IMG/VR virus record: IMGVR_UViG_3300010885_016694
Location: 1-64,000 of that record
From: a virus
Strand: one strand, 5' to 3'
Length of the DNA: 64,000 nucleotides
Shown here piece by piece: positions 8,380 through 64,000 of this stretch. Under the pieces are notes generated by a model, which was given only the letters and a program-made list of their open reading frames with translations, made no database searches and was not told where the DNA came from. How positions within the stretch are numbered: position 1 is the first letter of the stretch; the number at the start of each line of letters is the position of its first letter. Both the position numbers and the translations under genes were made by a program.

Positions 8380-8618
8380 TAAACCGTGTTTCGGTGAAAA
8401 CTAAATCAAACAAAGAGCATGTAATGGATGTCGAAACCTATGCTAGATGGTTGTGCTTGGTTGAAGCATTGGAATTTATAAATCAAAAAGCAAAACATAG
8501 CAAAATTGACTTAGATAAAGATGATAAATGGATTAAGCCACTAGCTATACAAAAATACATAAAACAACGATATCCGAGTATGTTTCATGATTTTAGGATA
8601 GAAGAGTATTTGGTTTAG
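8376..8618 (+). CDS. Hypothetical protein, 80 aa
   Basis: A small basic/helical protein (VETYARWLCLVEALEFIN; KPLAIQKYIKQRYPSMF) whose ATG overlaps the previous stop. It ends the operon, and its TAG overlaps the stop of the convergent fibre gene by 4 nt (8615-8618). Function unknown. Confidence 0.6.
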   Translation: MINRVSVKTKSNKEHVMDVETYARWLCLVEALEFINQKAKHSKIDLDKDDKWIKPLAIQKYIKQRYPSMFHDFRIEEYLV

Positions 8619-9877
8619 ATTATAGATATAAATGCAGGTGTAGCGGTTCCAGTGTACATATTACTATAATCGTTTACTGTATTATTGAATGGAGCTTTTC
8701 CTACATCATTTAAACAAGCTAAAACTTCAGCATTAGTTGGTCTAGTTAAGGGATCTGTAAAATATCTATCAGGATCATCAACATCTGTTATGGCTGGTTT
8801 ATAAGCTTGTGTGCATCCAATTTGATATCCACTAGATCCAGCATCAGTTTTTCCCCATATATTTAAATCACAACCAAAAGGTTTCCAAAATATAAATCTA
8901 CCATTTCCATCGTGTGCATCATCTAAATCATCACCAATAGGACCAATTAATCCATGAAAAAATGAATCAGTAGTCCACACACCTAAAGAATTTTGGTATG
9001 GTTTGCTTATCATACTGATATAGTATTGATCTGGAACATTATATGCATCAAAACAAAATATAAACCATCCTTCGGATTTAAATGGATAATCGTTTGTAAC
9101 AGTATCATACATAGGATACTTAGAAAAAGCTTTTGGTACATTATTTTCATTTATAGTTCTTCCTAAAAAGCCTTGCACTATTCTAATAAGACTATCATTT
9201 ATACTACCACCAACAGAGGCTTTTTCTGTATTTTTGATGCCACATATACTATTTTGTATTTCATAATTTATAAATGATATTCCAGCAGAAGCTCCAAGTG
9301 GTAAAGCCGAAGTTGTAAATTTAATAACAGTATCTGTAACACTATCTATAGTTATATTTGGTGATGCAACCACACTACCAGTTACTATACTTATGTTTTG
9401 TGCTGGAACATTAACATCTCTGTCAGGAACACCATTATTGAAGGTAATTGCTCCTGGTGCTGTGTTGGTTTTTGTTATATCAAATGTATAAGAAGTGCTT
9501 TCAGTTAAATTTAAAGATTTTGGTTCTTGTTTAGGTGGTAAACATTTTACAGCAACTTTTACTGTACCAGTATTTGATGATGCCATACCATCTGTAACAT
9601 TATAAGTAAACATATCATTACCAAACCAATTAGTCTTTGGTGTATATGTAAATGTTTTTTTGTCCCCACTTCTGGTTATAGTAGATCCTCCCAAAGACGT
9701 ACTATCAAAAGTGTTTATGGTTATATTTCCATCTGGAAAAGAATCTTGGTCAAAATCATTAATTAAAGCATTAATATTAATTGGTATCCCCATGTTTGTT
9801 TCATAAGAATCATCAAAAACTACTGGTGGTAAGTTTTTGACACTAATTGTGATTGCATATCCAACTCCTATAGCCAT
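8615..9877 (-). CDS. Receptor-binding tip protein with VCBS/cadherin-like domain and a new C-terminal module
   Basis: I chose the start at 9877 (MAIGVGYAITISV), 2 nt after the upstream stop. Residues ~20-110 form a Big_9/cadherin-like beta-sandwich (ININALINDFDQDSFPDG; FTYTPKTNWFGNDMFTY). A second beta region spans ~110-220. The last ~190 residues are a conserved module (IRIVQGFLG; EGWFIFCFDAYNVPDQYY; FHGLIGPIGD; YQIGCTQAYKP) with no family I recognise. The whole protein is paralogous to 62258-63514, and the C-terminal module is the best conserved part. It is probably distal on a fibre and contacts the host. Confidence 0.75.
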   Translation of the reverse strand: MAIGVGYAITISVKNLPPVVFDDSYETNMGIPININALINDFDQDSFPDGNITINTFDSTSLGGSTITRSGDKKTFTYTPKTNWFGNDMFTYNVTDGMASSNTGTVKVAVKCLPPKQEPKSLNLTESTSYTFDITKTNTAPGAITFNNGVPDRDVNVPAQNISIVTGSVVASPNITIDSVTDTVIKFTTSALPLGASAGISFINYEIQNSICGIKNTEKASVGGSINDSLIRIVQGFLGRTINENNVPKAFSKYPMYDTVTNDYPFKSEGWFIFCFDAYNVPDQYYISMISKPYQNSLGVWTTDSFFHGLIGPIGDDLDDAHDGNGRFIFWKPFGCDLNIWGKTDAGSSGYQIGCTQAYKPAITDVDDPDRYFTDPLTRPTNAEVLACLNDVGKAPFNNTVNDYSNMYTGTATPAFISII

Positions 9878-9879
9878 AA

Positions 9880-11415
9880 TTAATAGTTTTGTCCTCCAAT
9901 AAACCCATACCAAGTAGTACCGACTTTAGTTAAACAAAATATGTCAACTTTATCTTGTACTTTAGTTATTTCTGGAGTTCTTGTTGCTGCCCATTTTACT
10001 GGAGTATTATTTATTTTCCAATTAGTTACATTAAAAGGAGCTATATTAGTTCCTTTTTGGGTTATAAAAAGAGATACGGTATATGAATCTGCTGGTTCAT
10101 CAGTAAATGTAAATTCGGTTATATTTCCTGTCATATTTATTGTAAATATGTTTGAGGATTTTATGGATAATGATACATTTCCACTAGATCCTCCAACAGT
10201 ATATTTTTCCGAATGATTTTTTATTATTAATCTTCCTGACATTTCTCCACCAGAAAGTGGTAAAAAATTGTCATCTACATAAGATTTTTTAGCTAAATTA
10301 CCAGATGTGTTTGATACCAAAGTATCAACATAAACTTTAGTAACAAGATTTCTAGCAACTGCTGGATTATCATAAGGTGCTGTAATATAACCTTGAGTCA
10401 TTGTGCCACCAGATAATGGCAAATAGTTCGAAAGATTACTAAATTTAACATCTACATAATTTTTAGTTGAAGCTTGTTTTGGATCTGATAACAATACTGG
10501 ATCTTCGTTTAAGATCAATTTTCCAGTCATTGTATCATTTCCAGAAATATGTACAAAATTGCTATTTACATATGATTGTTTCGCTAAAAGTCCAGAAACC
10601 CCACTTAATGTAGTATCAACATAATTTTTATTGGTTGCATGACCAGATAAAGTAGGTAATCCACCTAGTGTCAAATAACTACCAACTTCCATCGAATCGG
10701 TAGATTTTTTTAAATATGTGGTATTATTGGTATTTCCAGCATTTGTTAATTTTGTTGTTATCTGGTCATCAACATATTTTTTATTTGCTGCTACGTTATC
10801 ACCCTGTCCAGTTACATCACCAACGAGATACAAATATCCCGTCATTGGTTTGGAAGCTCCACCAGATAGAGGAACAAATTTATCTACATAATTTTTATTG
10901 GCTGCTTGTTCTGCTGATATTGGATCATTATACAAATGTAAATATCCAGACATTTTTTTAGACTGTCCTCCAGATAAAGGAACATAAGCACCAGATAATT
11001 TGTCTACATATTGTTTATTCACCGCATCATTTGCAGATAATGGTGTATCTAGATTCTTGATTCTGTAATTGTGCATGTCCACAATACTATAAAATTCAGA
11101 AGTTCCGCTAACTGTCAGTGTATTGTTGAGATACAATGGACCCGCCATTTTTTCTGTTTGTAGATAATTTAATCCTCCTTTATCTAATTTTGATTGAAGT
11201 TGTTGGTTTGCGGTATTTACTGAATTTTGTAATGTAGTTAATCTTGTGTTTAAACCAGCTAAAACATCACCGCTAATTTTTTTAGACAATGTATCTAATC
11301 TTATCTTTTTAGTAAAATATGTTCCTCTATTGCTATCACCAACATCAAATACAGTATAATCCGTATCTTTGATAACAGATGATTCGTCTAGTCTATTTAT
11401 AAAAGAATCTGGCAT
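9880..11415 (-). CDS. Tail fibre shaft protein with repeated LPLSGG / KNYVD motifs
   Basis: A 511-residue protein. The N terminus (FINRLDESSVIKDTDYTVFD) resembles virion attachment modules of the gene at 57544. The middle has about eight repeats in which 'YVPLSGGxxKxMxGYLxL' alternates with 'NKxYVDxxxS', a pattern common in trimeric phage fibres. The last ~95 residues are a beta-rich tip ending WYGFIGGQNY. That tip matches the end of 61345-62256 in pattern (F-x-x-N-x-x-G, W-x-x-x-x-N, WY-x-FI-x-G-x-N). It is followed 2 nt later by the tip gene 8615-9877, as in cluster B. Confidence 0.8.
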   Translation of the reverse strand: MPDSFINRLDESSVIKDTDYTVFDVGDSNRGTYFTKKIRLDTLSKKISGDVLAGLNTRLTTLQNSVNTANQQLQSKLDKGGLNYLQTEKMAGPLYLNNTLTVSGTSEFYSIVDMHNYRIKNLDTPLSANDAVNKQYVDKLSGAYVPLSGGQSKKMSGYLHLYNDPISAEQAANKNYVDKFVPLSGGASKPMTGYLYLVGDVTGQGDNVAANKKYVDDQITTKLTNAGNTNNTTYLKKSTDSMEVGSYLTLGGLPTLSGHATNKNYVDTTLSGVSGLLAKQSYVNSNFVHISGNDTMTGKLILNEDPVLLSDPKQASTKNYVDVKFSNLSNYLPLSGGTMTQGYITAPYDNPAVARNLVTKVYVDTLVSNTSGNLAKKSYVDDNFLPLSGGEMSGRLIIKNHSEKYTVGGSSGNVSLSIKSSNIFTINMTGNITEFTFTDEPADSYTVSLFITQKGTNIAPFNVTNWKINNTPVKWAATRTPEITKVQDKVDIFCLTKVGTTWYGFIGGQNY

Positions 11416-15426: not shown

Positions 15427-16593
15427 ATGTTCATTAAAAATGGGAGTTTTAAAAATATAACGCACATAATTTCTTATGTGCCTCCCTTTATTACTGTACA
15501 ATTACTTTCTGGTACTGCTTTTTCTGGACAAGATTATACTTTTAAAATTAAAGTTAGAGGAAGTAAACCTATAACATATCAATGGTATAAAAATAATTTT
15601 CCATTAATAAATAAAACTAATAGTGAATTATTGATAGAGGATGTCACCTCATCTGATCAAGCATATTATTATTGTAAAATATCAAATAATGGACATTATG
15701 TAGAAAGTAATGTAGTACCATTAAGCGTAATCGAATCTCCATATATTGTAACACAACCAGTATCTGTATTATCGGCTATAGGAAGTAATATTTTGTTGAG
15801 CGTTTCGGCAACAGGTACAGAACCATTAACATATGAATGGTATAAAAATAATTTAATATATCAAGATAGTACTTCTAAAAATTTATATATTAATAACATA
15901 AATTATATAAATGAAGGTAGTTATTATGTGATAGTAACAAATGAATTTGGTAGTGCAACTAGTTTATCAGCTTCGGTTAGAATTATAGAACCTTTAATAA
16001 TAAGAACTCAGCCAACAAATTTAAATGTTAATAAAAATAATAATGCACAATTTTCTTTATCCTGTACTGGATATTTCCCTGTAAGTTCTCAATGGAGAAA
16101 GGATGGATCTTTATATGGAGATTTATCATCAAATAATAATGGTATTATTACTTTAAATATAAACACAACAAAATTGTCAGATATAGGATACTATGATTGT
16201 GTTTTAAGTAGTAAATACGATTCGGTAACTAGTGAAAAAGTTTATTTACAAGTTAATGAAAAACCAGTATTTACATTAAATCCATTATCAGCAGAAATAC
16301 CAATGACTCAAACGGTAACATTTATGGTGGACGCATCGGGTACAGACCCAATAACATACCAATGGATAAAAATTGGTACTGGTAATGTTTTAAACGAGAA
16401 AACAAAATTATATACAATACAAAATGTGGTTTTATCGGATCAAGCTGAATATGCATGTGTCGCCACTAATTTAGTGGGAAGTACTACCAGTTTATATGCA
16501 GCACTTTCGATAACACAACAGGAATTGATATTGTCCGATTCAAATCCGTATGAGTTTATATTATTAGATCAAAATGTTTATTGGTCTTTTTAA
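15427..16593 (+). CDS. Protein of four tandem immunoglobulin-like domains
   Basis: A 388-residue protein built almost entirely of Ig-like domains (about residues 20-105, 107-190, 191-280, 282-367). Each shows the I-set signature: a Trp in TYQWYKNN / TYEWYKNN / SSQWRKDG / TYQWIKIG, and a C-terminal Y-x-C (YYYCKI, YYDCVL, YACVAT; the second domain has YYVIV without Cys). The first and third domains lack the usual partner Cys, so disulfides are not general. A short tail motif (ELILSDSNPYEF) ends the protein, as in 59336-61309. Ig domains on phage tails usually give weak glycan binding. No N-terminal virion-anchoring module is visible, so it may pair with the fibre encoded just upstream. Confidence 0.85.
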   Translation: MFIKNGSFKNITHIISYVPPFITVQLLSGTAFSGQDYTFKIKVRGSKPITYQWYKNNFPLINKTNSELLIEDVTSSDQAYYYCKISNNGHYVESNVVPLSVIESPYIVTQPVSVLSAIGSNILLSVSATGTEPLTYEWYKNNLIYQDSTSKNLYINNINYINEGSYYVIVTNEFGSATSLSASVRIIEPLIIRTQPTNLNVNKNNNAQFSLSCTGYFPVSSQWRKDGSLYGDLSSNNNGIITLNINTTKLSDIGYYDCVLSSKYDSVTSEKVYLQVNEKPVFTLNPLSAEIPMTQTVTFMVDASGTDPITYQWIKIGTGNVLNEKTKLYTIQNVVLSDQAEYACVATNLVGSTTSLYAALSITQQELILSDSNPYEFILLDQNVYWSF

Positions 16594-16605: not shown

Positions 16606-18804
16606 ATGTCTTACAAAAGAATATTAGAGTTTACAAATTATAAAGATTTATCTGGATACGATAATATTCTTATTGATCATGATAATACAACATACAGAAC
16701 AGAATTAAGTTCTTTTGTATCGTATGTTTCAAATCAAGCTAAAGATACACCAAGTATATTGATAATATCTACTAATAATATAGCAGATAATTCAATAACT
16801 TTAAATAAATTAAATACTAATAGTGTAACCACTGAAAAAATATTAAATTCTAATGTTACTACAGAAAAAATAGCAGATAATTCAATTACTTCTTTTAAAT
16901 TATCTACAAATAGTGTTACTACAGAAAAAATTAATGACGGAGCAGTTACAGCATTAAAATTGGCAGATAATGTTTTTAATGCATCAAAATTACAAGATTT
17001 ATCAATTACAAATGCTAAATTAGCAGACGATTCTGTTACTGCAATTAAAATATCAAACAATTCTGTAACTTCAGCAAAAATAAATGACTCTGCTGTTACT
17101 GCTAGTAAAATAGCAGACGGAAATGTTACAACAATTAAAATAGTTAATTCTGCTGTTACTACAGATAAGTTAGCTGATGGTAGTGTTACTACTATAAAAC
17201 TTGCAAACTCTGCTGTTAATACAGATAAGTTAGCTGATGGTAGTGTTACCACGATTAAAATAGCTAATTCGGCAATAACAACTGATAAATTAACTGACGG
17301 ATCAGTAACAACAATTAAAATAGCTAATTCAGCAGTAACTACTGATAAGTTAGAGGATTCTTCTGTTACTACAATAAAAATAAATAACTCTTCTGTTACT
17401 ACAGATAAGTTAACTGATTCTGCTGTCATTACTTCAAAGCTAAATAACTCTTCTGTTATTACTGATAAATTAGCAGACTCTTCGGTTACTACTGCTAAAA
17501 TAGGAAATAATTCAATTACTACAGAAAAATTATCTACTGGTATTGTGACATCATTAATATTGGCAGATGGGTCGGTAACCACAGCAAAACTAGCTAATAA
17601 TGCAGTTACTACTGATAAATTATCTTCTTTATCTGTAACTAGTGATAAATTAGCTGATTTGTCGGTAACTACAGGAAAAATATCAAATTTATCTATAACA
17701 ACAGAAAAAATATATGATAATTCTGTTACAAACGCAAAATTGGCAGATAATTCGGTTTCCTCTGTAAAATTATCGTCTGATTCTGTAACCACAGACAAAA
17801 TACTCAATAGATCCGTAACAAATGCTAAATTAGCAGATACATCTGTAGATAATAGAGTTTTAGCATTGACTTGTGTAGCAACTAATAATATACAAGATTT
17901 ATCAATATCTACAAATAAAATACAAAATGGATCTATTACTACTGAAAAATTGGCAGGAAGTTTATCAGTTCCAATAGCATTAGCTGAAAAATCTGTTACC
18001 AATCCCATATTAGCCGATAGTGCTGTTGATACAGTAAAATTATCAGCAAGTTCGGTTACTACGGAAAAAATTAATGATAGTGCTGTTACCACAACTAAAA
18101 TAGCAACAGATGCGATTACTGAAATTAAAATTAAAGATAATGCCGTTATATCATCAAAATTAGCAGATAATGCTGTGGTTACATCAAGAATTAATGACGG
18201 TGCCGTAACAACAATAAAGCTTAATGATTTGGCAGTAACAAATGCTAAAATAGGAAATACATCAATTAATACTGATAAATTATCATCTTCAGCAGTAACT
18301 TCAGATAAACTTTCAGCTAGTTCTGTTATTACAGAAAAAATTAATGATTTAGCAGTAACAAATGCTAAAATAGCAAATGATGCTATTAATACTAGAACTC
18401 TTAGTGCAAATTGTGTCACCCCCGCTAAACTAGCAACAACTATAGTACAAACTAATGGTGGATTGAAATTGGATTCTACAAATGGTTTAGCAATTTCTAC
18501 AAAAGTAACCGAATATACCGTAAGTACAATATTAGGTTTGGCTGATGCTAATAGTATAATTGAAGTAAATGCGGCAGCGGGAGTTACAATTACTATACCA
18601 CAAGATACAGTTGCAAATCTTGATGTGGGAACTAATATAGTAATATACCAAAAGGGTGCTGGACAAGTTACTATTTCTTATGCTGTCGGTATGACTGTTG
18701 TGAGTAATGGTTCAAAATTTAAAACATCTGCACAATATGCTGCAATAGCATTATTTAAACTTGGAGCAAATAGATGGTTAGTTGGTGGGGATTTAACCGC
18801 ATAA
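16606..18804 (+). CDS. Tail fibre made of about 55 perfect-register decapeptide repeats
   Basis: A 732-residue fibre. Residues 1-60 (ILEFTNYKDLSGYDNILIDH) look like the virion-binding head shared with 57544. From about residue 61 to 610 there is an unbroken series of 10-residue repeats with consensus [DN]-x-[SA]-[VI]-T-T-x-K-[LI]-x, for example DGSVTTIKIA and NSAVTTDKLA. The last ~100 residues form a globular tip (IIEVNAAAGVTITIPQD ... ALFKLGANRWLVGG) resembling the tips of other fibres here. The regular spacing of V/I, K and L/I suggests a long, uniform trimeric beta shaft. It has its own late promoter box. Confidence 0.85.
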   Translation: MSYKRILEFTNYKDLSGYDNILIDHDNTTYRTELSSFVSYVSNQAKDTPSILIISTNNIADNSITLNKLNTNSVTTEKILNSNVTTEKIADNSITSFKLSTNSVTTEKINDGAVTALKLADNVFNASKLQDLSITNAKLADDSVTAIKISNNSVTSAKINDSAVTASKIADGNVTTIKIVNSAVTTDKLADGSVTTIKLANSAVNTDKLADGSVTTIKIANSAITTDKLTDGSVTTIKIANSAVTTDKLEDSSVTTIKINNSSVTTDKLTDSAVITSKLNNSSVITDKLADSSVTTAKIGNNSITTEKLSTGIVTSLILADGSVTTAKLANNAVTTDKLSSLSVTSDKLADLSVTTGKISNLSITTEKIYDNSVTNAKLADNSVSSVKLSSDSVTTDKILNRSVTNAKLADTSVDNRVLALTCVATNNIQDLSISTNKIQNGSITTEKLAGSLSVPIALAEKSVTNPILADSAVDTVKLSASSVTTEKINDSAVTTTKIATDAITEIKIKDNAVISSKLADNAVVTSRINDGAVTTIKLNDLAVTNAKIGNTSINTDKLSSSAVTSDKLSASSVITEKINDLAVTNAKIANDAINTRTLSANCVTPAKLATTIVQTNGGLKLDSTNGLAISTKVTEYTVSTILGLADANSIIEVNAAAGVTITIPQDTVANLDVGTNIVIYQKGAGQVTISYAVGMTVVSNGSKFKTSAQYAAIALFKLGANRWLVGGDLTA
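16787..18436 (+). repeat. 30-bp tandem coding repeats (about 55 copies)
   Basis: The DNA encoding the decapeptide array has a strict 30-bp period with no insertion or deletion visible from start to end. Neighbouring copies differ mainly at third positions, but several blocks (around 17140-17340) are almost identical. Such an array can lengthen or shorten by recombination in 30-bp steps without breaking the frame. Confidence 0.85.
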
Positions 18805-57054: not shown

Positions 57055-57531
57055 ATGAAAGTCCCAAAAATTCTTAAACTAAGACGATTGAAGATTAGAA
57101 GGGGTAACGAAATTCAAAGAAAAGATGTTTTATTTGAAGAAGGGGAACCAGTCTTTACCAAAGATAATAAAAGAGTTTATATTGGTGATAACAAAACAAT
57201 AGGAGGAATTTCATCAACAACAAGAAATTATGTTAAACCAACAGCAGAAATACCACCAGATTCAAAAAAATTCGATATAATATATGCCGAAGATAAAAAA
57301 CAAGGATTAATAATAGAAAAAAATGGAAATTTGAGATCAATATTTCCTTCTTTTGTTGATTGTTGTATTAATATCAAAAAAGATATAGATATTATTGCAG
57401 CATTATTAACAAGAATGGAAATTGAGTGCTGTAATCCTGATTTGATGTTGATTAGAGATGACGAAGATAAGATATTAACTGATCAAGGTGTTTGGATTAA
57501 ACTAAAAGATTATAAATATCCATCTCCATAA
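57055..57531 (+). CDS. Small fibre protein with Mtd-like N-terminal module, 158 aa
   Basis: Residues ~8-60 (LKIRRGNEIQRKDVLFEEGE ... DNKRVYIGDNKTIGG) match the short beta module at the N terminus of the Bordetella phage tropism determinant and many phage fibres: 'l-R-R-G ... r-x-x-x-x-f-x-x-G-E-x-x-y-x-t-D-x-x-r-x-x-i-G-d-g-x-x-x-G-G'. Residues ~108-135 carry CCINIKKDIDIIAALLTRM, a short coiled coil after a Cys pair that is shared with 59336-61309. It ends with no distal receptor domain. It may therefore be an adaptor onto which another fibre assembles. Confidence 0.7.
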   Translation: MKVPKILKLRRLKIRRGNEIQRKDVLFEEGEPVFTKDNKRVYIGDNKTIGGISSTTRNYVKPTAEIPPDSKKFDIIYAEDKKQGLIIEKNGNLRSIFPSFVDCCINIKKDIDIIAALLTRMEIECCNPDLMLIRDDEDKILTDQGVWIKLKDYKYPSP

Positions 57532-57532
57532 T

Positions 57533-57538
57533 TAAATA
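57533..57538 (+). promoter_or_regulatory. Late promoter box for the gene at 57544
   Basis: TTAAATA over the upstream stop, 5 nt (TAATT), then ATG. Confidence 0.7.
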
Positions 57539-57543
57539 TAATT

Positions 57544-58173
57544 ATGGGCGTTAAAATAGTAGATCTTCCAGCAATTCCAGCGACACTAAAAAATGAGGAT
57601 TTGTTTCCTGTTTCAGAAGATAATTCAGGAACTAGGGATACTTATAAAATTTCTGCACAAAGTGTAGCATCTTTTGTTAATACTGGTCCTTATCAGGCTA
57701 TAAGTGATTTAGAAACTAGATTAGGATCTTCTGGTAATACAAATATTTCAAATTTACAAAATTTTTTAATTTCTAATTATCTCCCTTTAAGTGGAGGTAC
57801 TATGAGAGGTGATTTGGATTTACAAAGCAATAAATTAAAACACTTTTCTGGGGAGATAACCACAATTACCACCGAAACATTTTTAACATCAGCACACAAT
57901 GGGATGATAATTTTAGTACAAAAAAGCCCAATAGTTACTCCAGATGATCGCGTTTTATTAAAAATCAACAATGGAACATTACCTTTAGGATTTAATGCGC
58001 TTGTAATTCAAACTGGAGATATACAAGCAAAAATTTCAAATCCAGATACTAATGTTGATTTAGTAAATGCTGATAGTTCTTTATCTACTAGACAAAAATA
58101 TTCCCAAATGAATGTTTGTGTGATTAAAAAGGGAACGAGAGATATGGTTTGGTTATCTGGTGATATAGTTTAA
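57544..58173 (+). CDS. Short tail fibre protein with LPLSGGTM motif, 209 aa
   Basis: The N-terminal module (VKIVDLPAIPATLKNEDLFP; DTYKISAQSVASFV) resembles those of 9880-11415 and 16606-18804. A helical neck follows (YQAISDLETRLG), then YLPLSGGTMRGDLDLQSNKL, a single copy of the fibre shaft repeat. The C-terminal ~100 residues are a small beta tip (HNGMIILVQKSPIVTPDDRV ... VCVIKKGTRDMVWLSGDIV). It looks like a minimal version of the long minus-strand fibre: one repeat instead of eight. Confidence 0.7.
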   Translation: MGVKIVDLPAIPATLKNEDLFPVSEDNSGTRDTYKISAQSVASFVNTGPYQAISDLETRLGSSGNTNISNLQNFLISNYLPLSGGTMRGDLDLQSNKLKHFSGEITTITTETFLTSAHNGMIILVQKSPIVTPDDRVLLKINNGTLPLGFNALVIQTGDIQAKISNPDTNVDLVNADSSLSTRQKYSQMNVCVIKKGTRDMVWLSGDIV

Positions 58174-58178
58174 TTTTT

Positions 58179-59324
58179 ATGATTGCTGCACCTACAGTTA
58201 GAACAATATATAAAAAGAAACAAAGAAATGTATTGGATTTATTCTCTGTAGAAGGAGAAGGTGGTTATATGTCTCCAAATTATACGTTCATGTTTAAGTC
58301 TTCTGCATTTTTTAATAATAATATATTAACAGATGTTCAAAATATGATTGCTTCGACAAGAACAATTAAAAGTTTTACATTAGGTACTGAAACATATAAT
58401 TATCTTGACAATGTATTACGAGTTTCTTTAGGAAATAATAACGAATGTGTGATGTACCGAGATGGAACAGTAGACATAAATAAAAAAACTTACAATTTTC
58501 CATATTTAAAAAGTGTAATGTATGATATAAGAGACACGTTTACTCCAAGTAGTTATGCTGGAGGTGGAAGTCAATATCAACAAATGTTGTTACTAGAAAA
58601 TGGTGATTTGGTTGAAATAAATACATATACCCAAACAAATTCGATATTATTAACAGATGTTAAACAATTTATAACAAAAAACCAAGCACATAGAACTGAT
58701 GCTATAATTGGTATGAATAATGGAGATATGTATCATGTATGGGTTGGTCCTACTCCCACGGGTTCTAGTGGAAATGGCACAGCAACAGGAGTTTTAAAAA
58801 TTAATGGATTAAATCACAACGATCTTCTTTTTTGTACAATAGGAGATCCACCAGCAGGAGCCACATTTTGTAAAAAAAGTGATCCACAAAATCTTTATAG
58901 ATTTATTAAAGGATCTGGAACTAGTTTTAAAATAACAGGATTTAACACAACTCCTATTGCTAGTATGGCTTTAACAGATCCAATCGAATATTATGTTGAT
59001 GGTATGTCTCAAGAATTTAATTCTTTATTTTTGACAAATAAAAAATTAATACATAAACATACGGGAAGTTGGTATACTGCTGTAGATTGGGGTGCTGGAG
59101 GATGGACTAGAAGTTATGACGGAGAAACTCCTAAATTATATGCAAAAAGAATAGCAACCCCGACAGCGTATTCTATGATTGTCGAGGATATGTATGGTAA
59201 ATTTTGGTTATGTAATAATGGTGGTGCGACTAGTTCGCCGGGAGGATTTAATAAACCAATAAGTTATGATTTTTTTGATACACTAAAAACTTATCTAGAA
59301 CCCATAAGAGCAAAAATTAGCTAA
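58179..59324 (+). CDS. Probable receptor-binding tip protein, RCC1-like propeller pattern, 381 aa
   Basis: Strand repeats such as NECVMYRDGTVDINKKTYNF, QQMLLLENGDLVEINTYTQT, TDAIIGMNNGDMYHVWVG and YSMIVEDMYGKFWLCNNGG have the 'L-x-x-x-G-x-v' blade rhythm of RCC1-type propellers. No membrane or enzyme motif is seen. It follows the minimal fibre at 57544 without a promoter, mirroring the shaft/tip gene pairs at 9880/8615 and 61345/62258. Likely a fibre tip; the fold is a visual guess. Confidence 0.5.
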   Translation: MIAAPTVRTIYKKKQRNVLDLFSVEGEGGYMSPNYTFMFKSSAFFNNNILTDVQNMIASTRTIKSFTLGTETYNYLDNVLRVSLGNNNECVMYRDGTVDINKKTYNFPYLKSVMYDIRDTFTPSSYAGGGSQYQQMLLLENGDLVEINTYTQTNSILLTDVKQFITKNQAHRTDAIIGMNNGDMYHVWVGPTPTGSSGNGTATGVLKINGLNHNDLLFCTIGDPPAGATFCKKSDPQNLYRFIKGSGTSFKITGFNTTPIASMALTDPIEYYVDGMSQEFNSLFLTNKKLIHKHTGSWYTAVDWGAGGWTRSYDGETPKLYAKRIATPTAYSMIVEDMYGKFWLCNNGGATSSPGGFNKPISYDFFDTLKTYLEPIRAKIS

Positions 59325-59327
59325 ATA
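59322..59327 (+). promoter_or_regulatory. Possible late promoter box for the gene at 59336
   Basis: CTAAATA, 8 nt, then ATG, so spacing is longer than usual. Confidence 0.45.
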
Positions 59328-59335
59328 ATATTCAA

Positions 59336-61309
59336 ATGATCGATAGAAGAATAGGAAAAATAAAGGTCAGAAGAGGTAAGGAAATAGAAAGGAAGCCCTT
59401 AATATTTGAAGAAGGGGAACTTATTTATTCTATCGATAAACAGAGACTTTTTATTGGTGATGGTGTATTGCCTGGTGGTATTTTAGTTTCTAATAGAAAT
59501 TATGTTTTAGTTTCTTTAGGCGTAACTACTAAAGTTATACCATCTACTGGTGTATATGGTGACATAATACACGAAACAAGTACCAATAGAACTTATATTA
59601 TAGGCTATGAATCAGATAATGTAACTTTAAAGTTAATATTATTAGCAGATGGTAATTGTTGTATTAATTTACAAAATGAAATTGATGATTTGTATGCTAG
59701 ATTAAGACCTTTGACGGCTTGTTTAAATTCTCAAGGACCATCAACTCCCCCACCCCCACCACCAGCAACATTTGCGTGGAGTATACAACCAGATTCTGTT
59801 GCTGGTAATGTAGGAGAATCCGTCACATTACATGCTAGAGCCTACGGGCCAAGTTCTATAGTATATCAATGGACTAATCTATCTACTGGAGATATTTTGG
59901 GTGCAGTTGGAGAGTATTATGCAATACCATCATTATCACTTAGTAATATAGGAAATTATACTTGTAAAGCAACTTCAAGTTTGGGGACTATAGTTAGTAA
60001 TCCAGCATCAATCACTGTTGCTGGTAATTCTATTTTAGCAGAAACATCCGAATATATCTTAACAGAAAATGGAGATTATATAGATTGGGAAGTTAGCGTC
60101 AACGTATCTCCTAAAATAACAACTCAACCCATAACTCAATCGACAGTAGCATTGACAAATAAAATATTTACAGTTAATGCCACGGGCACTTTACCATTAA
60201 CATATCAATGGAGGATAAATGGAGTCGATATTTCAGGAGAAACAAATAACACATATACAGCACAATCACCAACACTTGATATACTGGGTCTTACATGTAA
60301 AGTCAGCAATATTGCTGGTGAAGTTATTAGTAATTCTGTAAATTTAACAGTAGGTTCATTACCAGCTATTACCAAACAACCAACAGGCTCAACAGTATCT
60401 AAGGGAACTAAAATTACATTAGATGTAGATGCAACTGGATCTTCGCCATTAACATATCAATGGATGCGTAATGGTAGTGCAATTACAGGAGCAAATTCTG
60501 ATACATATGTAATAAATTCTGGAAGTGTTACTGATTCTGGAACTTATAAATGCGTAGTCAGTAATCCATTTGGATCAGCTACCAGTAGTGAAGTTTCGGT
60601 AGTTGTTAATAATTCTTTTGATGCTGGGGATATTATAATAGCAGCAGATGTTGTTGATTTTTCGTTAAAAAAAGCATTAATTAATAAAGGATGGGATCAA
60701 GTTTTACCAGTTATTGTAACTGTTACGGTTAATAGTGGTATTAAAGTTGGATCTAGTTCAACTGCAACTGCGGCATTTAATGTTGAATCACTTCCAAGTG
60801 GCAGTACAGTAAAATTAATAAATAATGGATATATTGTAGGAGCAGGTGGTGTTGGTGGAGGAGATGTAACAAATGGAGGTAATGGAGGTAATGCATTAAA
60901 CTTATTAAGTGATATTACCATTATTAACAATGAAACAATTGGTGGTGGTGGAGGTGGTGGAGGTGGTACTGGGCTTAATCAAAGAGGTCAGCCAGCCAGA
61001 GCTAGTTTTGGTGGTGGTGGTGGTGCAGGACATATAGTCGGAAAGGGTGGCGTTCAACAGGCACAATCTGGAAATTATGGTACTGCTAATATAGCAAAAT
61101 CGGGGCAACTATTGCTTGGTGGGTCTGGTGGATTAGCAATAGGTAGTACTCATGGAGGAAGTGGTGGTGCATTAGGAAAAAATGGATTTACTGCTGTAAA
61201 CGAATTTAATTCTCCTGTTGGTACAGGAGGACAAGCAGGTTATTCGATAACTGGAGTTACATATGTAACATGGATAACTAAAGGATCTATATTAGGACCG
61301 ATGCAGTAA
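59336..61309 (+). CDS. Adhesin: Mtd-like module, three Ig domains and a gp38-like glycine-rich tip
   Basis: A 657-residue protein with a clear order. Residues ~5-60 form the Mtd-like N-terminal module (IKVRRGKEIERKPLIFEEGE). Next is a CCINLQNEIDDLYARL coiled coil near 105-120 and a poly-Pro hinge (PSTPPPPPPA). Ig-like domains follow at ~144-230 (VYQWTNL, YTCKAT), ~259-339 (TYQWRING, LTCKVS) and ~342-425 (TYQWMRNG, YKCVVS), with a short ILTENGDYIDWE motif between the first two. The last ~160 residues are glycine-rich (GGGGGGGGGTGLNQRG; FGGGGGAGH; LLGGSGGLAIG), like the poly-glycine sandwich tip of gp38-type adhesins of T-even phages. This is the strongest receptor-binding candidate in cluster B. 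Confidence 0.75.
   Translation: MIDRRIGKIKVRRGKEIERKPLIFEEGELIYSIDKQRLFIGDGVLPGGILVSNRNYVLVSLGVTTKVIPSTGVYGDIIHETSTNRTYIIGYESDNVTLKLILLADGNCCINLQNEIDDLYARLRPLTACLNSQGPSTPPPPPPATFAWSIQPDSVAGNVGESVTLHARAYGPSSIVYQWTNLSTGDILGAVGEYYAIPSLSLSNIGNYTCKATSSLGTIVSNPASITVAGNSILAETSEYILTENGDYIDWEVSVNVSPKITTQPITQSTVALTNKIFTVNATGTLPLTYQWRINGVDISGETNNTYTAQSPTLDILGLTCKVSNIAGEVISNSVNLTVGSLPAITKQPTGSTVSKGTKITLDVDATGSSPLTYQWMRNGSAITGANSDTYVINSGSVTDSGTYKCVVSNPFGSATSSEVSVVVNNSFDAGDIIIAADVVDFSLKKALINKGWDQVLPVIVTVTVNSGIKVGSSSTATAAFNVESLPSGSTVKLINNGYIVGAGGVGGGDVTNGGNGGNALNLLSDITIINNETIGGGGGGGGGTGLNQRGQPARASFGGGGGAGHIVGKGGVQQAQSGNYGTANIAKSGQLLLGGSGGLAIGSTHGGSGGALGKNGFTAVNEFNSPVGTGGQAGYSITGVTYVTWITKGSILGPMQ
60823..61190 (+). 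repeat. Glycine-codon-rich (GGT/GGA) region of the adhesin gene
   Basis: Runs of GGT/GGA codons, densest at 60939-60969 and 61010-61026, encode the glycine-rich tip loops. The simple sequence favours slippage in multiples of 3 bp. Confidence 0.6.
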
Positions 61310-61344: not shown

Positions 61345-62256
61345 ATGGCAACCCAAATTGATGCACTAATTAAACTCCGTAGAGGACCAGATTCAGAAAG
61401 ACAGTTAATAAATTTTGATTCTGGAGAAATTGTATTCTCTACGGATATCAAACGTGCATTTATTGGGAATAACGATCAAATTGGTGGTTATATTATTGGT
61501 AACCTAAATACAGTAGGCACAATACCAAGCCCATCTGCGTTACAATACGATTTATTTTATAAACCATCCATAAGCACCCTTTACATGCTTACAGCATTTA
61601 ATTTAGGACCAGATTTACTTCAAAATTATGCAAGAATAACACCAGATGGGGACGGAACTACCATAAAATTTGAAAATGGAAAGTATTCTGTAATTGATTC
61701 TTTTATTTATGGTACATTAGATAGTAGATATGTTAATGTAACGGGGGATACCATGACTGGTTCTTTGTGTATAAACAACACAACAGGCAATTCTTTAGAG
61801 GTTAACAGACCTATTAAGGTAGATTATATCACATCAACACAGACATTGTCAATACAAAAACCAACTATTCAAATTTTTAATAATTATAGTGAAGTTGTTT
61901 CTTCTATTGATGTGAATACAACTACTCCAATACCAACAATAAATTTAAATCAGGCAAATAATTTTATTTTAAATTTATATGGACACTTGAGTGGATTCAA
62001 TATAACAAATTGTCCTACAGAGGGGGCATCGTTTACTGTGGTGTTAAGACATAAATCAAATAATTTAAAAGTTGATTGGAAATTACAATTAAATGGTGGG
62101 TCTTTTTTAATTCCTAAATGGCAAATGGGTAGACTACCATTAACGTCTAAAGTAAATGGTTGCGAAGATGCATTTGCTTTTGCTTATATGTCTGGACAGT
62201 GGTATTGTTTTATTGCTGGTGTAAATATGATATCACCAATAGCAACTGTTTCATAA
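61345..62256 (+). CDS. Tail fibre with Mtd-like N terminus and globular tip, 303 aa
   Basis: Residues ~8-55 (LIKLRRGPDSERQLINFDSG; DIKRAFIGNNDQIGG) are the Mtd-like module. Residues ~120-160 have a short shaft element with MTGSLCINNTTGNSLEV. The last ~105 residues match the tip of 9880-11415: NFILNLYGHLSGFNITNCP, then WKLQLNGGSF, then GQWYCFIAGVNM. A tip gene follows with TAATATG (62258), reproducing the two-gene cassette of cluster A with a different virion anchor. Confidence 0.75.
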   Translation: MATQIDALIKLRRGPDSERQLINFDSGEIVFSTDIKRAFIGNNDQIGGYIIGNLNTVGTIPSPSALQYDLFYKPSISTLYMLTAFNLGPDLLQNYARITPDGDGTTIKFENGKYSVIDSFIYGTLDSRYVNVTGDTMTGSLCINNTTGNSLEVNRPIKVDYITSTQTLSIQKPTIQIFNNYSEVVSSIDVNTTTPIPTINLNQANNFILNLYGHLSGFNITNCPTEGASFTVVLRHKSNNLKVDWKLQLNGGSFLIPKWQMGRLPLTSKVNGCEDAFAFAYMSGQWYCFIAGVNMISPIATVS

Positions 62257-62257
62257 T

Positions 62258-63514
62258 ATGCCAATAGGACTACCCAGAATCTTCATGAAAAGCTCCAACA
62301 TACCGCCTGTGGCGTTGGGAGACGAATTATCTACATATATGGGGGTTCCTGTTGATGTAAATCCATTGTTAAACGATAATGATCCTGATAATTTTCCCGG
62401 TACTGGACTTTTGGTTTACTCATACGACACTACATCATTTGATGGTTCAATAATTACAATATACCCAACTAAAACAACTTTAAAATATACACCAAAAACA
62501 AATTATTTTGGTGTTGACATATTTCAATATACGGCAACCGATGGATTAGGCGTTTCTAATACTGCTGTTGTTAAATTGAGTGTAATATGCAAACCTCCTA
62601 TTAAAGTTTCTAGAACTTTAAATCTTGTGAGTGGGAAAACCTATAATCTTGACATTACCGACCCAGCTTCCGTTCCAGCAGGAGAAATAAAATTTGTTGG
62701 TGGTTTGGGGGATAGAGATGTAAACATTCCTGCACAACCAATTAGAATTATACCGGGATCAATTGCTAAATCATCAAATATAACAATTAATTTAACTTCA
62801 AATACTGTAATTAATTTTACGGTTTCGGTTCCAACAGGAGGAGCTTCTACTTCAGTTGGAACTTTTATAGATTATGAATTAGAGAACACAACATGTGGGT
62901 TAAAATCCACCGATAAATCTAGCACTGGGGGTTCATCAAACAACTCAAATATTCGTATCGTTCAAGGATATTTGGGTGTTACTATAAATGAAGGAAATGT
63001 TCCTTTAGCATTTACTAAATATCCAATGTTTGATTTAGCAACAAAGGATTATCCTTGGGACAATGAAGGTTGGTTTTTGTTTACGTTTGATACTTATAGT
63101 GTTCCCGACCAATATTATATAACTATGGTTAGTAAACCATATAAAGACATTAATGGAAATTGGACGACTGATAAATCATTTCATGGTTTGATCGGTCCTA
63201 TTGGAGATAGTATTAATGAAGGCAATGGCAGATTTTTATTCTGGAAAGATAAAGGAATGGATTTAAATTGTTGGGGATGTACTCCTAATGGAGGTAGTGC
63301 ATACCAAATGGGTTGTGTCCAAGCATATAAACCTAGTGTAACCGATCCTAAAGATCCTGCTAGATATTTTATGGATAAAAATGTACCACCAACGAATGCA
63401 GAAATTGCTACATGTTTGGCTGCGGTTGGTAGTCCACCATTTACAAATACAGCAGTAGATTACACTGGAACATTTACTGGTACAGGATTACCACCATTTG
63501 TTGCTGCAATTTAA
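62258..63514 (+). CDS. Receptor-binding tip protein, paralogue of 8615-9877
   Basis: A 418-residue protein. Residues ~15-110 form a Big_9/cadherin-like sandwich (PVDVNPLLNDNDPDNFPGTG; KYTPKTNYFGVDIFQYTATD). A second beta region follows. From ~225 comes the conserved C-terminal module: IRIVQGYLGVTINEGNVPLA, EGWFLFTFDTYSVPDQYY, FHGLIGPIGDSI, GNGRFLFWKDKG, YQMGCVQAYKP. About half or more of the C-terminal positions are identical to 8615-9877 by eye. Differences concentrate in loops (WGCTPNGG versus WGKTDAGS; KDLNGNW-type loops), as expected for receptor-contact surfaces. It has no promoter of its own. Confidence 0.75.
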   Translation: MPIGLPRIFMKSSNIPPVALGDELSTYMGVPVDVNPLLNDNDPDNFPGTGLLVYSYDTTSFDGSIITIYPTKTTLKYTPKTNYFGVDIFQYTATDGLGVSNTAVVKLSVICKPPIKVSRTLNLVSGKTYNLDITDPASVPAGEIKFVGGLGDRDVNIPAQPIRIIPGSIAKSSNITINLTSNTVINFTVSVPTGGASTSVGTFIDYELENTTCGLKSTDKSSTGGSSNNSNIRIVQGYLGVTINEGNVPLAFTKYPMFDLATKDYPWDNEGWFLFTFDTYSVPDQYYITMVSKPYKDINGNWTTDKSFHGLIGPIGDSINEGNGRFLFWKDKGMDLNCWGCTPNGGSAYQMGCVQAYKPSVTDPKDPARYFMDKNVPPTNAEIATCLAAVGSPPFTNTAVDYTGTFTGTGLPPFVAAI

Positions 63515-63525: not shown

Positions 63526-64000
63526 ATGCCAACAAATCCGTATAAAAATACAGAACAAGTAAATGCTGTAATAAAAGTCCGTAGAGGACCAGAAGTAGAC
63601 AGAGTACAAGTCACATATGAAGATGGTGAATTAATCTACTCTACTGATAAAAAAAGATTGTTTGTTGGTGATGGTGTTGGTGATGAAGGAACCGATGGAG
63701 GAAATTTAGTTGGTAATAGATTGTGGATTTCTAATAGTTTTAACTCCGCAAGTTTACCATATATTGAAAAATATGATTTAGTATATCGTCCTATTACTAC
63801 TGGATTTTATATATTAACTGGAGATTCAATTGTAGATCCAGCCAGCTATTTATTGGTTGGGGGTAAAGAATTAATACCACAAGTATCAACTTATACGATA
63901 CCAAAAGCATCAAATTCTATTTTAGGTGGAGTTATTGTTAAAACGGGTTTGACAGTAGATGTAAATGGTAATCTTAATCTTGATTATGATTCAAATACTT
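63526..64000 (+). CDS. Tail fibre with Mtd-like N-terminal module (partial, runs off the window)
   Basis: The 158 visible residues begin MPTNPYKNTEQVNAVIKVRR. The Mtd-like module follows: VRRGPEVDRVQVTYEDGELI, then TDKKRLFVGDGVGDEGTDGG. After it come YIEKYDLVYRPITTGFYILT, a segment shared in style with 61345-62256 (QYDLFYKPSISTLYML), and the beginning of a beta shaft (SNSILGGVIVKTGLTVDVNG). The gene continues past the right edge, so its receptor-binding end is not seen. The frame is open to the edge. Confidence 0.75.
   Translation, partial: MPTNPYKNTEQVNAVIKVRRGPEVDRVQVTYEDGELIYSTDKKRLFVGDGVGDEGTDGGNLVGNRLWISNSFNSASLPYIEKYDLVYRPITTGFYILTGDSIVDPASYLLVGGKELIPQVSTYTIPKASNSILGGVIVKTGLTVDVNGNLNLDYDSNT

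What the first reader, a model, noticed from the sequence alone, without database searches (positions are those of the whole stretch)
59336..61309. Adhesin combining Ig domains with a gp38-like glycine-rich tip
T-even gp38 tips are separate proteins on long fibres. Here a similar Gly-rich tip is fused to three Ig domains and a short virion anchor. This offers a candidate host-range determinant with hypervariable loops between glycine runs.
Basis: partly seen in the sequence, partly recalled or inferred. Interest (0 to 1): 0.55.

Follow-up and report, generated by a model that had tools for sequence, protein, structure and literature searches.

The report
Ig-stalked phage adhesin with gp38 tip
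This virus gene appears to encode a host-recognition protein in which a glycine-lattice tip, known from T2- and S16-like phage fibres, is joined to an immunoglobulin stalk and a mounting domain that related phages fit with quite different tips.

Summary
In detail: 59336-61309 is one 657-aa ORF with an Mtd_N anchor, three Ig domains and a Gly-rich end scoring above the Pfam GP38 cut-off. AlphaFold2 with 45 aligned sequences gives a confident tip model (pLDDT 94.1, pTM 0.90) that matches solved gp38 of S16 (Z 24.9, rmsd 2.4 over 198 residues) and PP01 (Z 23.8), against a collagen-like or unstructured reading. gp38's helical attachment domain is missing; Ig domains stand in its place. The five segments matching PP01's receptor loops are the most variable part of the domain family.

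Related contigs carry the anchor-Ig scaffold with other heads: a sortilin-like propeller, RCC1 repeats, NHL plus Ig repeats, or none. Best reading: a tail-mounted adhesin with a swappable head. Binding, virion location and host are untested.

In passing: 11 of 86 tip loci cut the tip after its long poly-Gly run, with the second half seen as a separate ORF in 10; a radical-SAM gene is near in 9 of 11, versus 0 of 59 intact-tip loci.

The parts
59336..61309 (+). Gene for the 657-aa adhesin (stop codon included)
   Evidence: ORF list; Pfam and PHROGs
59336..59503 (+). Mtd_N-type anchor, residues 1-56
   Evidence: Pfam Mtd_N 9-44, marginal; anchor alignment and HMM; fold not confirmed
59504..59716 (+). 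Second N-terminal beta segment and helix 108-127, residues 57-127
   Evidence: Full-length model; conserved in relatives
59711..59761 (+). Pro-rich linker, residues 126-142, pLDDT under 50
   Evidence: Model
59762..60019 (+). Ig domain 1, residues 143-228
   Evidence: Pfam Ig_3, 3 stretches in the protein; model
60020..60100 (+). Hinge with ILAETSEYILTENGDYIDWE motif, residues 229-255
   Evidence: pLDDT under 50 at 231-254; conserved in relatives
60101..60358 (+). Ig domain 2, residues 256-341
60359..60613 (+). Ig domain 3, residues 342-426
   Evidence: Best Ig_3 stretch 343-410
60614..60826 (+). Start of the gp38-type tip: beta scaffold, residues 427-497
   Evidence: Model; 63 of 71 identical to L002
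60827..61243 (+). Gly-rich polyglycine-II part of the tip, residues 498-636
   Evidence: GP38 match 457-655; fold match
61244..61306 (+). C-terminal beta strands of the tip, residues 637-657
   Evidence: Strands 638-640, 644-648, 651-653
60860..60874 (+). Loop A, residues 509-513
   Evidence: Placed by eye from the profile alignment with PP01 gp38; coordinates
60968..61006 (+). Loop B, residues 545-557
   Evidence: As loop A
61052..61108 (+). Loop C, residues 573-591
   Evidence: As loop A
61133..61153 (+). Loop D, residues 600-606
   Evidence: As loop A
61187..61219 (+). Loop E, residues 618-628
   Evidence: As loop A
57055..57531 (+). Small protein with a related anchor, 158 aa
   Evidence: Mtd_N 24.3 bits, under the cut-off; anchor alignment
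61345..62256 (+). Protein with a related anchor, 303 aa
   Evidence: Mtd_N only 10.3 bits; anchor alignment
63526..64000 (+). Anchored protein that runs to 65322 of the record and ends in a second, different Gly-rich stretch
   Evidence: Mtd_N 30.3 bits; full ORF L004:3527-5323

Best explanation
The gene encodes a modular receptor-binding protein of a distant T4-like myovirus. The N-terminal Mtd_N segment mounts it on the tail or a tail fibre (inferred). A short helix, a flexible Pro-rich linker and three Ig domains with a flexible hinge between Ig1 and Ig2 form a stalk (predicted). The C-terminal 230 residues fold as a gp38-type beta-helix plus polyglycine-II sandwich (predicted with high confidence), presenting five variable loops that contact a host surface receptor (inferred from PP01 and S16 gp38). 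The Ig stalk takes the place of gp38's helical cap and the gp37 fibre. The same anchor-Ig scaffold in related phages carries other folds as heads, so host recognition in this group can change by exchange of the whole head as well as by loop variation.
For: Domains. Tip fold: pLDDT 94.1, pTM 0.90; 6f45_D Z 24.9, rmsd 2.4 over 198 and 9v85_A Z 23.8, rmsd 2.5 over 205; Foldseek E 4.7e-11 (9v85_C) and 1.4e-7 (6f45_D); profile match to 6f45_D E 2.2e-7. Loops placed from PP01 have mean entropy 2.74 bits against 1.45 for the rest of the PGII part; 0 of 138 circular shifts of the loop mask reach that difference. In the one close relative, residues 427-497 are 63 of 71 identical, while 498-524 are 15 of 27 with 7 gap columns. 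Mount: the anchor occurs with a sortilin-like propeller, RCC1 repeats, NHL repeats or no extra head in other contigs. L096:7001 and L098:7001 are 60-96% identical in each anchor, Ig and hinge region, but one head is sortilin-like and the other has no Pfam match. Context: baseplate gp25 and a Tail Collar protein upstream. A stand-alone homologue of the tip is encoded directly after the annotated tail-fibre gene in Sphaerotilus phage R1, and another directly after a long gene annotated only as hypothetical in a Limnohabitans phage.
Against: No virion proteomics, binding or mutant data. Residues 1-30 are modelled poorly (block pLDDT 41-58) and the anchor profile found no solved relative, so tail mounting rests on a marginal Pfam hit, similar neighbours and context; of 10 anchored relatives tested only 5 pass the Mtd_N cut-off, 4 score below it and 1 has no listed match. 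The best solved sequence matches of the Ig part are 9ncf_S, named only 'Immunoglobulin-like domain protein', and 9c2d_S, which I take to be Sf14 gp20, a capsid decoration protein. The entropy contrast is partly circular, since loops are the stretches between Gly runs. Loops B-E of a close relative were not seen. The full-length model has pTM 0.49, so domain arrangement is unknown.
Confidence: 0.8

Rival explanations
1. It is a Hoc-like capsid decoration protein: Ig domains project from the head and the Gly-rich domain gives weak, general adhesion, not primary host recognition.
For: Among solved chains the Ig part matches 9ncf_S (E 1.5e-50) and 9c2d_S (E 1.8e-37) best; 9C2D is the Sf14 virion, whose gp20 is a Hoc-like decoration protein with three Ig-like domains (PMC11821841, passages). 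phrog_4069 and phrog_2973, both 'Hoc-like head decoration', match the Ig part.
Against: The two printed alignments cover query 254-426 only; the N-terminus is Mtd_N-like; the gene lies beside a collar protein and other anchored genes, downstream of baseplate genes; the tip is a gp38 fold.
Confidence: 0.1
2. The Gly-rich tip is a structural cap or folding aid and the Ig domains bind the receptor, as Ig-like domains of lambda gpJ do.
For: Ig-like domains at the end of lambda gpJ recognise LamB (PMC12309495, passages). Ig1 is the most divergent of the three Ig domains against the close relative (47 of 89 identical in 141-230).
Against: The tip is distal in sequence and resembles a domain with mapped receptor contacts in PP01 gp38 (PMC12892980, abstract and one section). 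In relatives the tip is replaced by other folds while the Ig part stays.
Confidence: 0.12
3. The tip is diversified by a diversity-generating retroelement, as Mtd of Bordetella phage is.
For: Mtd_N-type anchor.
Against: No PF00078 match in the 67.5-kb record; the same search gave matches in 4 of 14 control genomes, 3 over the cut-off. Of 13 direct-repeat families in 57-64 kb, the long ones are anchor and Ig copies; the rest are GGT-type runs and short two-copy matches. The record is a fragment, so an element elsewhere is not excluded.
Confidence: 0.03
4. The Gly-rich part is collagen-like or disordered.
For: High Gly content.
Against: pLDDT 94.1 and the gp38 fold.
Confidence: 0.02

Closest known systems
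gp38 adhesin of phages S16 and PP01 (PF05268; PDB 6F45, 9V85)
   Same: Tip fold over residues 431-657; like S16 gp38, a short and a long Gly-rich extension from a beta-helix, the second starting with a poly-Gly run, with variable loops between Gly runs.
   Different: The structural alignment starts at S16 gp38 residue 47, so the helical attachment domain is absent; not a separate protein. Identity 24-28% over the structural alignments.
Stand-alone gp38-like proteins of Limnohabitans phage YIMV22061, Sphaerotilus phage vB_SnaP-R1 and Macromonas phage BK-30P
   Same: The only three named-phage records matched by the tip at E <= 0.01, 39-44% identity over tip residues 5-65.
   Different: 252-278 aa proteins with a short N-terminal stretch, no Ig or anchor seen in the translations.
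Longer proteins with a gp38-like tip (phrog_11439; BFVD A0A6J5L9H1)
   Same: Tip at positions 576-764 of a 775-position tail-fibre profile; best BFVD match is a 756-aa 'Tail fiber protein'.
   Different: Whether any has an Mtd_N anchor or Ig domains was not seen. phrog_10745 (unknown function) aligns across the Ig3-tip junction, residues 388-546, so a similar junction may already be in that family.
Mtd of Bordetella phage (Mtd_N, PF18454)
   Same: N-terminal segment of about 36 residues; Mtd is a host-specificity protein at the ends of tail fibres (PMC3567102, passages).
   Different: No reverse transcriptase found in the record; the head is a gp38-type tip; anchor fold not confirmed.
Hoc-like Ig decoration proteins (Sf14 gp20)
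   Same: Three Ig domains; 9c2d_S matches at E 1.8e-37.
   Different: Printed alignments cover Ig only; gp38 tip present; tail-gene neighbourhood.

Membership tests
GP38 domain family (PF05268), for the tip only | Profile match above the curated cut-off | tested here: met
   50.3 bits against 25, E 3.6e-13, residues 457-655, profile 27-216 of 218.
GP38 domain family (PF05268), for the tip only | beta-helix plus polyglycine-II sandwich fold of solved gp38 | tested here: met
   Predicted model, Z 24.9 and 23.8 against 6f45_D and 9v85_A. A prediction, not a solved structure.
GP38 domain family (PF05268), for the tip only | Gly-rich motifs separated by hypervariable segments | tested here: met
   Loops 2.74 bits mean entropy against 1.45 for the rest of the PGII part; loop choice partly circular.
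T2/S16-type gp38 as a whole protein | N-terminal helical attachment domain capping a gp37 trimer | tested here: not met
   The alignment covers gp38 residues 47-249; the chain before residue 427 is Ig.
T2/S16-type gp38 as a whole protein | Separate gene product | tested here: not met
   One 657-aa ORF.
T2/S16-type gp38 as a whole protein | Binds a host surface receptor and sets host range | not testable with these tools
   Host unknown; no binding data.
Mtd_N domain (PF18454) | Profile match above the curated cut-off | tested here: met
   26.4 against 26.3 bits, marginal. Neighbours: 63526 scores 30.3, 57055 24.3 and 61345 10.3. Relatives: 5 of 10 above, up to 33.6, 4 below, 1 not listed.
Mtd_N domain (PF18454) | Trimeric N-terminal fold mounted on the tail | tested here: inconclusive
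   Residues 1-30 at pLDDT 41-58 as a monomer; no credible PDB match by sequence profile.
Major tropism determinant with retroelement | Reverse transcriptase and template repeat | tested here: inconclusive
   No PF00078 match in the record, which is a fragment.
Hoc-like capsid decoration protein | Several Ig domains | tested here: met
   Three stretches of Ig_3.
Hoc-like capsid decoration protein | Capsid-binding domain | tested here: inconclusive
   Printed matches to 9c2d_S cover Ig domains only and the N-terminus is Mtd_N-like, but location in the virion was not observed.

The most novel reading that the evidence does not exclude
The locus is an array of exchangeable adhesins. One phage carries several anchored proteins with unrelated ends (here a gp38-type tip and a second Gly-rich end), and related phages replace the whole head on a conserved anchor-Ig scaffold with a sortilin-like propeller, RCC1 repeats or NHL repeats. 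Host jumps would then come from swapping entire receptor-binding folds at the Ig boundary, and the gp38 lattice would work without gp37, possibly as three tips per anchor if the anchor is trimeric like Mtd.
Probability: 0.45. Interest if true: 0.6.

Novelty: new variant of a known kind. Interest (0 to 1): 0.45.

Why it matters
gp38 tips have been studied as caps on trimeric T-even fibres. A gp38-type tip carried by an Ig-stalk chain would show that the polyglycine lattice is a portable receptor-binding head. The relatives give a natural series, same mount and stalk with different heads, in which the rules of head exchange and host change in uncultured T4-like phages could be read from sequence.

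Tried and rejected
Collagen-like or disordered Gly region: rejected by the model and fold match. Retroelement diversification: no PF00078 in the record; not excluded genome-wide. Hoc-like decoration: kept as a rival. Named phages near window 40,000-64,000 by megablast: none. Residues 1-140 against named phages by tblastn at E <= 0.01: none. Anchor profile against solved structures: one chance-level chain. Gene 54105 as bait for syntenic loci: no match; the anchor alignment worked. A resemblance by eye of the L096 head to the start of the gp38 tip: not supported, hhalign probability 1.5%. Weak VIA rows (5w6f_A Z 6.0, 8yk3_B 3.6, 9d93_Qa 3.1, 7ypx_A 3.0) were not pursued. Papers: searches listed nothing that I recognised as an Mtd_N-Ig-gp38 fusion; two searches listed nothing that I recognised as a radical-SAM-linked phage tip. 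That is an open-access library, of which I saw listings and, in five papers, an abstract, passages or a section.

Sets and dropped rows: of 108 related viral stretches only the best 80 were returned, plus 6 genome loci. L009 and L095 are the L002 contig, L107 the L003 contig. 59 of 86 tip proteins counted as intact by my C-terminal pattern, 45 distinct; L087 and L091 were left out of the 45-row alignment. 11 of 86 were classed as split by eye; the other 16 are cut by a contig end or have another ending, and some of them (such as L031 and L081) look whole. L002 was left out of the entropy count. Pfam was run on 10 tip proteins and 10 anchored proteins, not on all. ORF starts in my scripts are the first ATG, GTG or TTG after a stop, so lengths before the tip are upper estimates.

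Full report
What is there. The window is the first 64,000 bases of a 67,531-base viral record. Its terminase is 31% identical to that of Synechococcus phages and matches the T4-type terminase family; the record also encodes a contractile-tail sheath and baseplate gp25, so it is part of a distant T4-like myovirus. The ORF at 59336-61309 has 657 codons. Pfam gives Mtd_N at 9-44, three Ig stretches and GP38 at 457-655.

Tip. I built a tip alignment from the window, its close relative L002 and 43 tips from other viral or genome contigs. As a profile it finds the solved gp38 of S16 (E 2.2e-7) and PP01 (E 1.3e-4). The AlphaFold2 model of residues 431-657 has pLDDT 94.1 and pTM 0.90. Foldseek's three PDB chains with E <= 0.001 are all gp38. 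VIA-align gives Z 24.9 (rmsd 2.4, 198 residues) for 6f45_D and 23.8 (rmsd 2.5, 205 residues) for 9v85_A, against 6.0 for the next entry. The layout follows the published S16 description, a beta-helix with a short extension and a long extension beginning with a poly-Gly helix (PMC6851490, passages). The S16 attachment domain before residue 47 has no counterpart in the alignment; the chain up to residue 426 is Ig domain.

Loops. PP01's putative receptor loops A-E are listed in PMC12892980 (one section; abstract). Reading the alignment by eye I placed their counterparts at residues 509-513, 545-557, 573-591, 600-606 and 618-628. Mean column entropy there is 2.74 bits, against 1.45 in the rest of the PGII part and 1.48 in the beta scaffold; 0 of 138 circular shifts of the loop mask reach the difference. 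Because loops are the stretches between Gly runs, part of that contrast is built in. Against the only close relative the beta scaffold is the best conserved part listed (63 of 71 identical), while the next 27 residues, holding loop A, are 15 of 27 identical with 7 gap columns, and 525-541 are 9 of 17; that contig ends inside the tip.

Stalk and anchor. A full-length model (36 rows, pLDDT 84.4, pTM 0.49) shows a helix at 108-127, poorly modelled stretches at 1-8, 126-142 and 231-254, three Ig domains and the tip. The anchor fold is therefore not confirmed. Related anchors start genes 57055, 61345 and 63526; the last ends at 65322 of the record in a second Gly-rich stretch that the tip profile does not match. 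At the DNA level the anchor copies at 57087, 59359 and 63570 are 68-70% identical over 108 nt.

The anchor as a mount. The anchor alignment brought in 15 loci from 15 contigs, two of them contigs already held. Their anchored proteins have different ends. Of 10 examined with Pfam, all have an Ig match at E <= 0.01, 7 of them over a cut-off: L098:7001 ends in a sortilin/Vps10-like propeller, L099:7001 and L099:8752 carry RCC1 repeats, L100:7001 has NHL and Ig repeats, L096:7001 has three Ig stretches and a last 115 residues without a Pfam match, and L096:6241 and L098:5988 show only anchor and Ig. L096:7001 and L098:7001 are 60-96% identical region by region up to the head, whose forced alignment has 24 of 99 identical. 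Against the window protein their anchors are 75-77% identical and Ig2 55-59%, the heads 18-28% in forced alignment. A gp38 head on this scaffold was seen only in the window and in L002: 1 of 86 tip proteins (L009, the L002 contig) has the anchor and this Ig type, and among the ORFs of at least 90 aa in L096-L109 none matches the tip profile at E <= 1. Other Ig-like or fn3-type domains occur before the tip, for example Big_12 in L011 and L089, in the 10 tip proteins tested.

How it most likely works. Shown or predicted: domain order, the gp38 fold of the tip, absence of the gp38 attachment domain, sharing of the scaffold with other heads. Inferred: mounting on the tail through Mtd_N, the Ig part as a spacer with two flexible joints, receptor contact by loops A-E. 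Mtd sits at the ends of Bordetella phage tail fibres as a homotrimer, though hexamers are also discussed (PMC3567102, passages); this suggests but does not show several tips per mount.

Known or new. The tip belongs to the GP38 domain family; the whole protein is not a T-even gp38, since the attachment domain and the separate gene are lacking. Tips in longer proteins exist already (phrog_11439; BFVD A0A6J5L9H1). The Mtd_N plus Ig scaffold with exchangeable heads, one of them a gp38 tip, was not recognised in the literature searches listed under Tried and rejected. I rate it a new variant of a known kind.

A side result. In 11 of 86 tip loci the ORF stops just after the first long poly-Gly run. 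In 10 of these a second ORF restarts the tip: first halves cover profile positions 1 or 2 to 124-129 of 244; second halves run from 131-135 to 243-244 in nine, and from 109 in L038. The eleventh, L022, ends before a second half could be seen. All 10 second halves have a Cys-rich motif near their start (CGAC, CACAC, CVCAC or CECC). A radical-SAM protein is found in 9 of 11 split loci and 0 of 59 intact ones, and an ATP-grasp-like protein in 9 of 11 and 0 of 59; the 16 other loci have neither. Radical_SAM passes the Pfam cut-off in the 2 tested. In the 4 tested with NCBIfam the best full-length models are PapB ranthipeptide maturase or viperin, all under their cut-offs, while L064 passes the SPASM-domain model TIGR04085 (29.4 against 27 bits). 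The ATP-grasp name rests on one match under the cut-off (L026, 25.5 against 26.8 bits) and weak hits of L040; others tested gave no family. 42 of the 59 intact loci have at least 3 kb downstream, and L011 and L022 have only about 1 kb. The two HMMs were trained on proteins from split loci, and several split loci are close relatives, so independent cases are fewer than 11. The window's record has no radical-SAM match. This deserves its own study.

Noticed in passing
L011:2596-4095, L012:2-1552, L026:4855-8261, L028:5812-6818, L032:3917-5419, L034:5800-8275, L038:5818-6819, L040:5809-6775, L058:5821-6786, L064:5818-9045, L022:5800-6393: gp38-like tips encoded in two pieces, cut just after the first long poly-Gly run; the second ORF (seen in 10 of 11) has a Cys-rich motif near its start. 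A radical-SAM gene is near in 9 of 11 and an ATP-grasp-like gene in 9 of 11, each 0 of 59 for intact tips. May be a RiPP-like matured or ligated two-piece receptor tip.
   Followed up: partly
L022:6412-7578, L026:6407-7867, L034:6412-7827, L064:6376-8624: The radical-SAM gene follows the first tip half directly in L022, L026 and L034, and after a fatty-acid desaturase gene in L064; in L026, L034 and L064 the second tip half comes after it.
   Followed up: partly
63526-64000 of the window, to 65322 of the record (L004:3527-5323): A second anchored protein of the same phage ends in a different Gly-rich domain with no Pfam match at E <= 0.01 and no named-phage match by tblastn.
   Followed up: partly
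L003:2278-2985, L109:8366-9010, L028:9293-10150: Fatty-acid desaturase genes near Mtd_N-type or gp38-tip genes; L109 also has a radical-SAM protein with a B12-binding-like domain and a TauD-like gene.
   Followed up: no
L090:3938 onward: Tip-like ORF in a Candidatus Gracilibacteria MAG is interrupted by in-frame stops under table 11; that group is recalled to read TGA as Gly, which would suit a Gly-rich tip, so it was not counted as split. Not tested.
   Followed up: no
L096:10443-11681: IS605 OrfB/TnpB-like gene (Cas12f1-like TNB domain) a few genes downstream of the adhesin array in a 236-kb relative.
   Followed up: no
60020-60100 (residues 229-255); ends of L096:6241-6990, L097:3725-4582 and window 15427-16593: A short ILxExxxYILxE..IxWE-like motif ends several anchored or Ig proteins, but here it lies between Ig1 and Ig2, as if Ig2, Ig3 and the head were added behind an older end.
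   Followed up: partly
8615-9913 (-) and 62258-63514 (+): Two Big_9/cadherin-like proteins that look paralogous by eye, on opposite strands and in different fibre-gene groups.
   Followed up: no
16606-18804 (+): 732-aa protein of degenerate VTTxKI-type repeats with a 561-aa antisense open frame at 16734-18419; no Pfam match.
   Followed up: no
57531-59336, compared with L002:6366-6437: The close relative L002 has no room for the two genes 57544-58173 and 58179-59324, so gene content of the array differs between near relatives.
   Followed up: no
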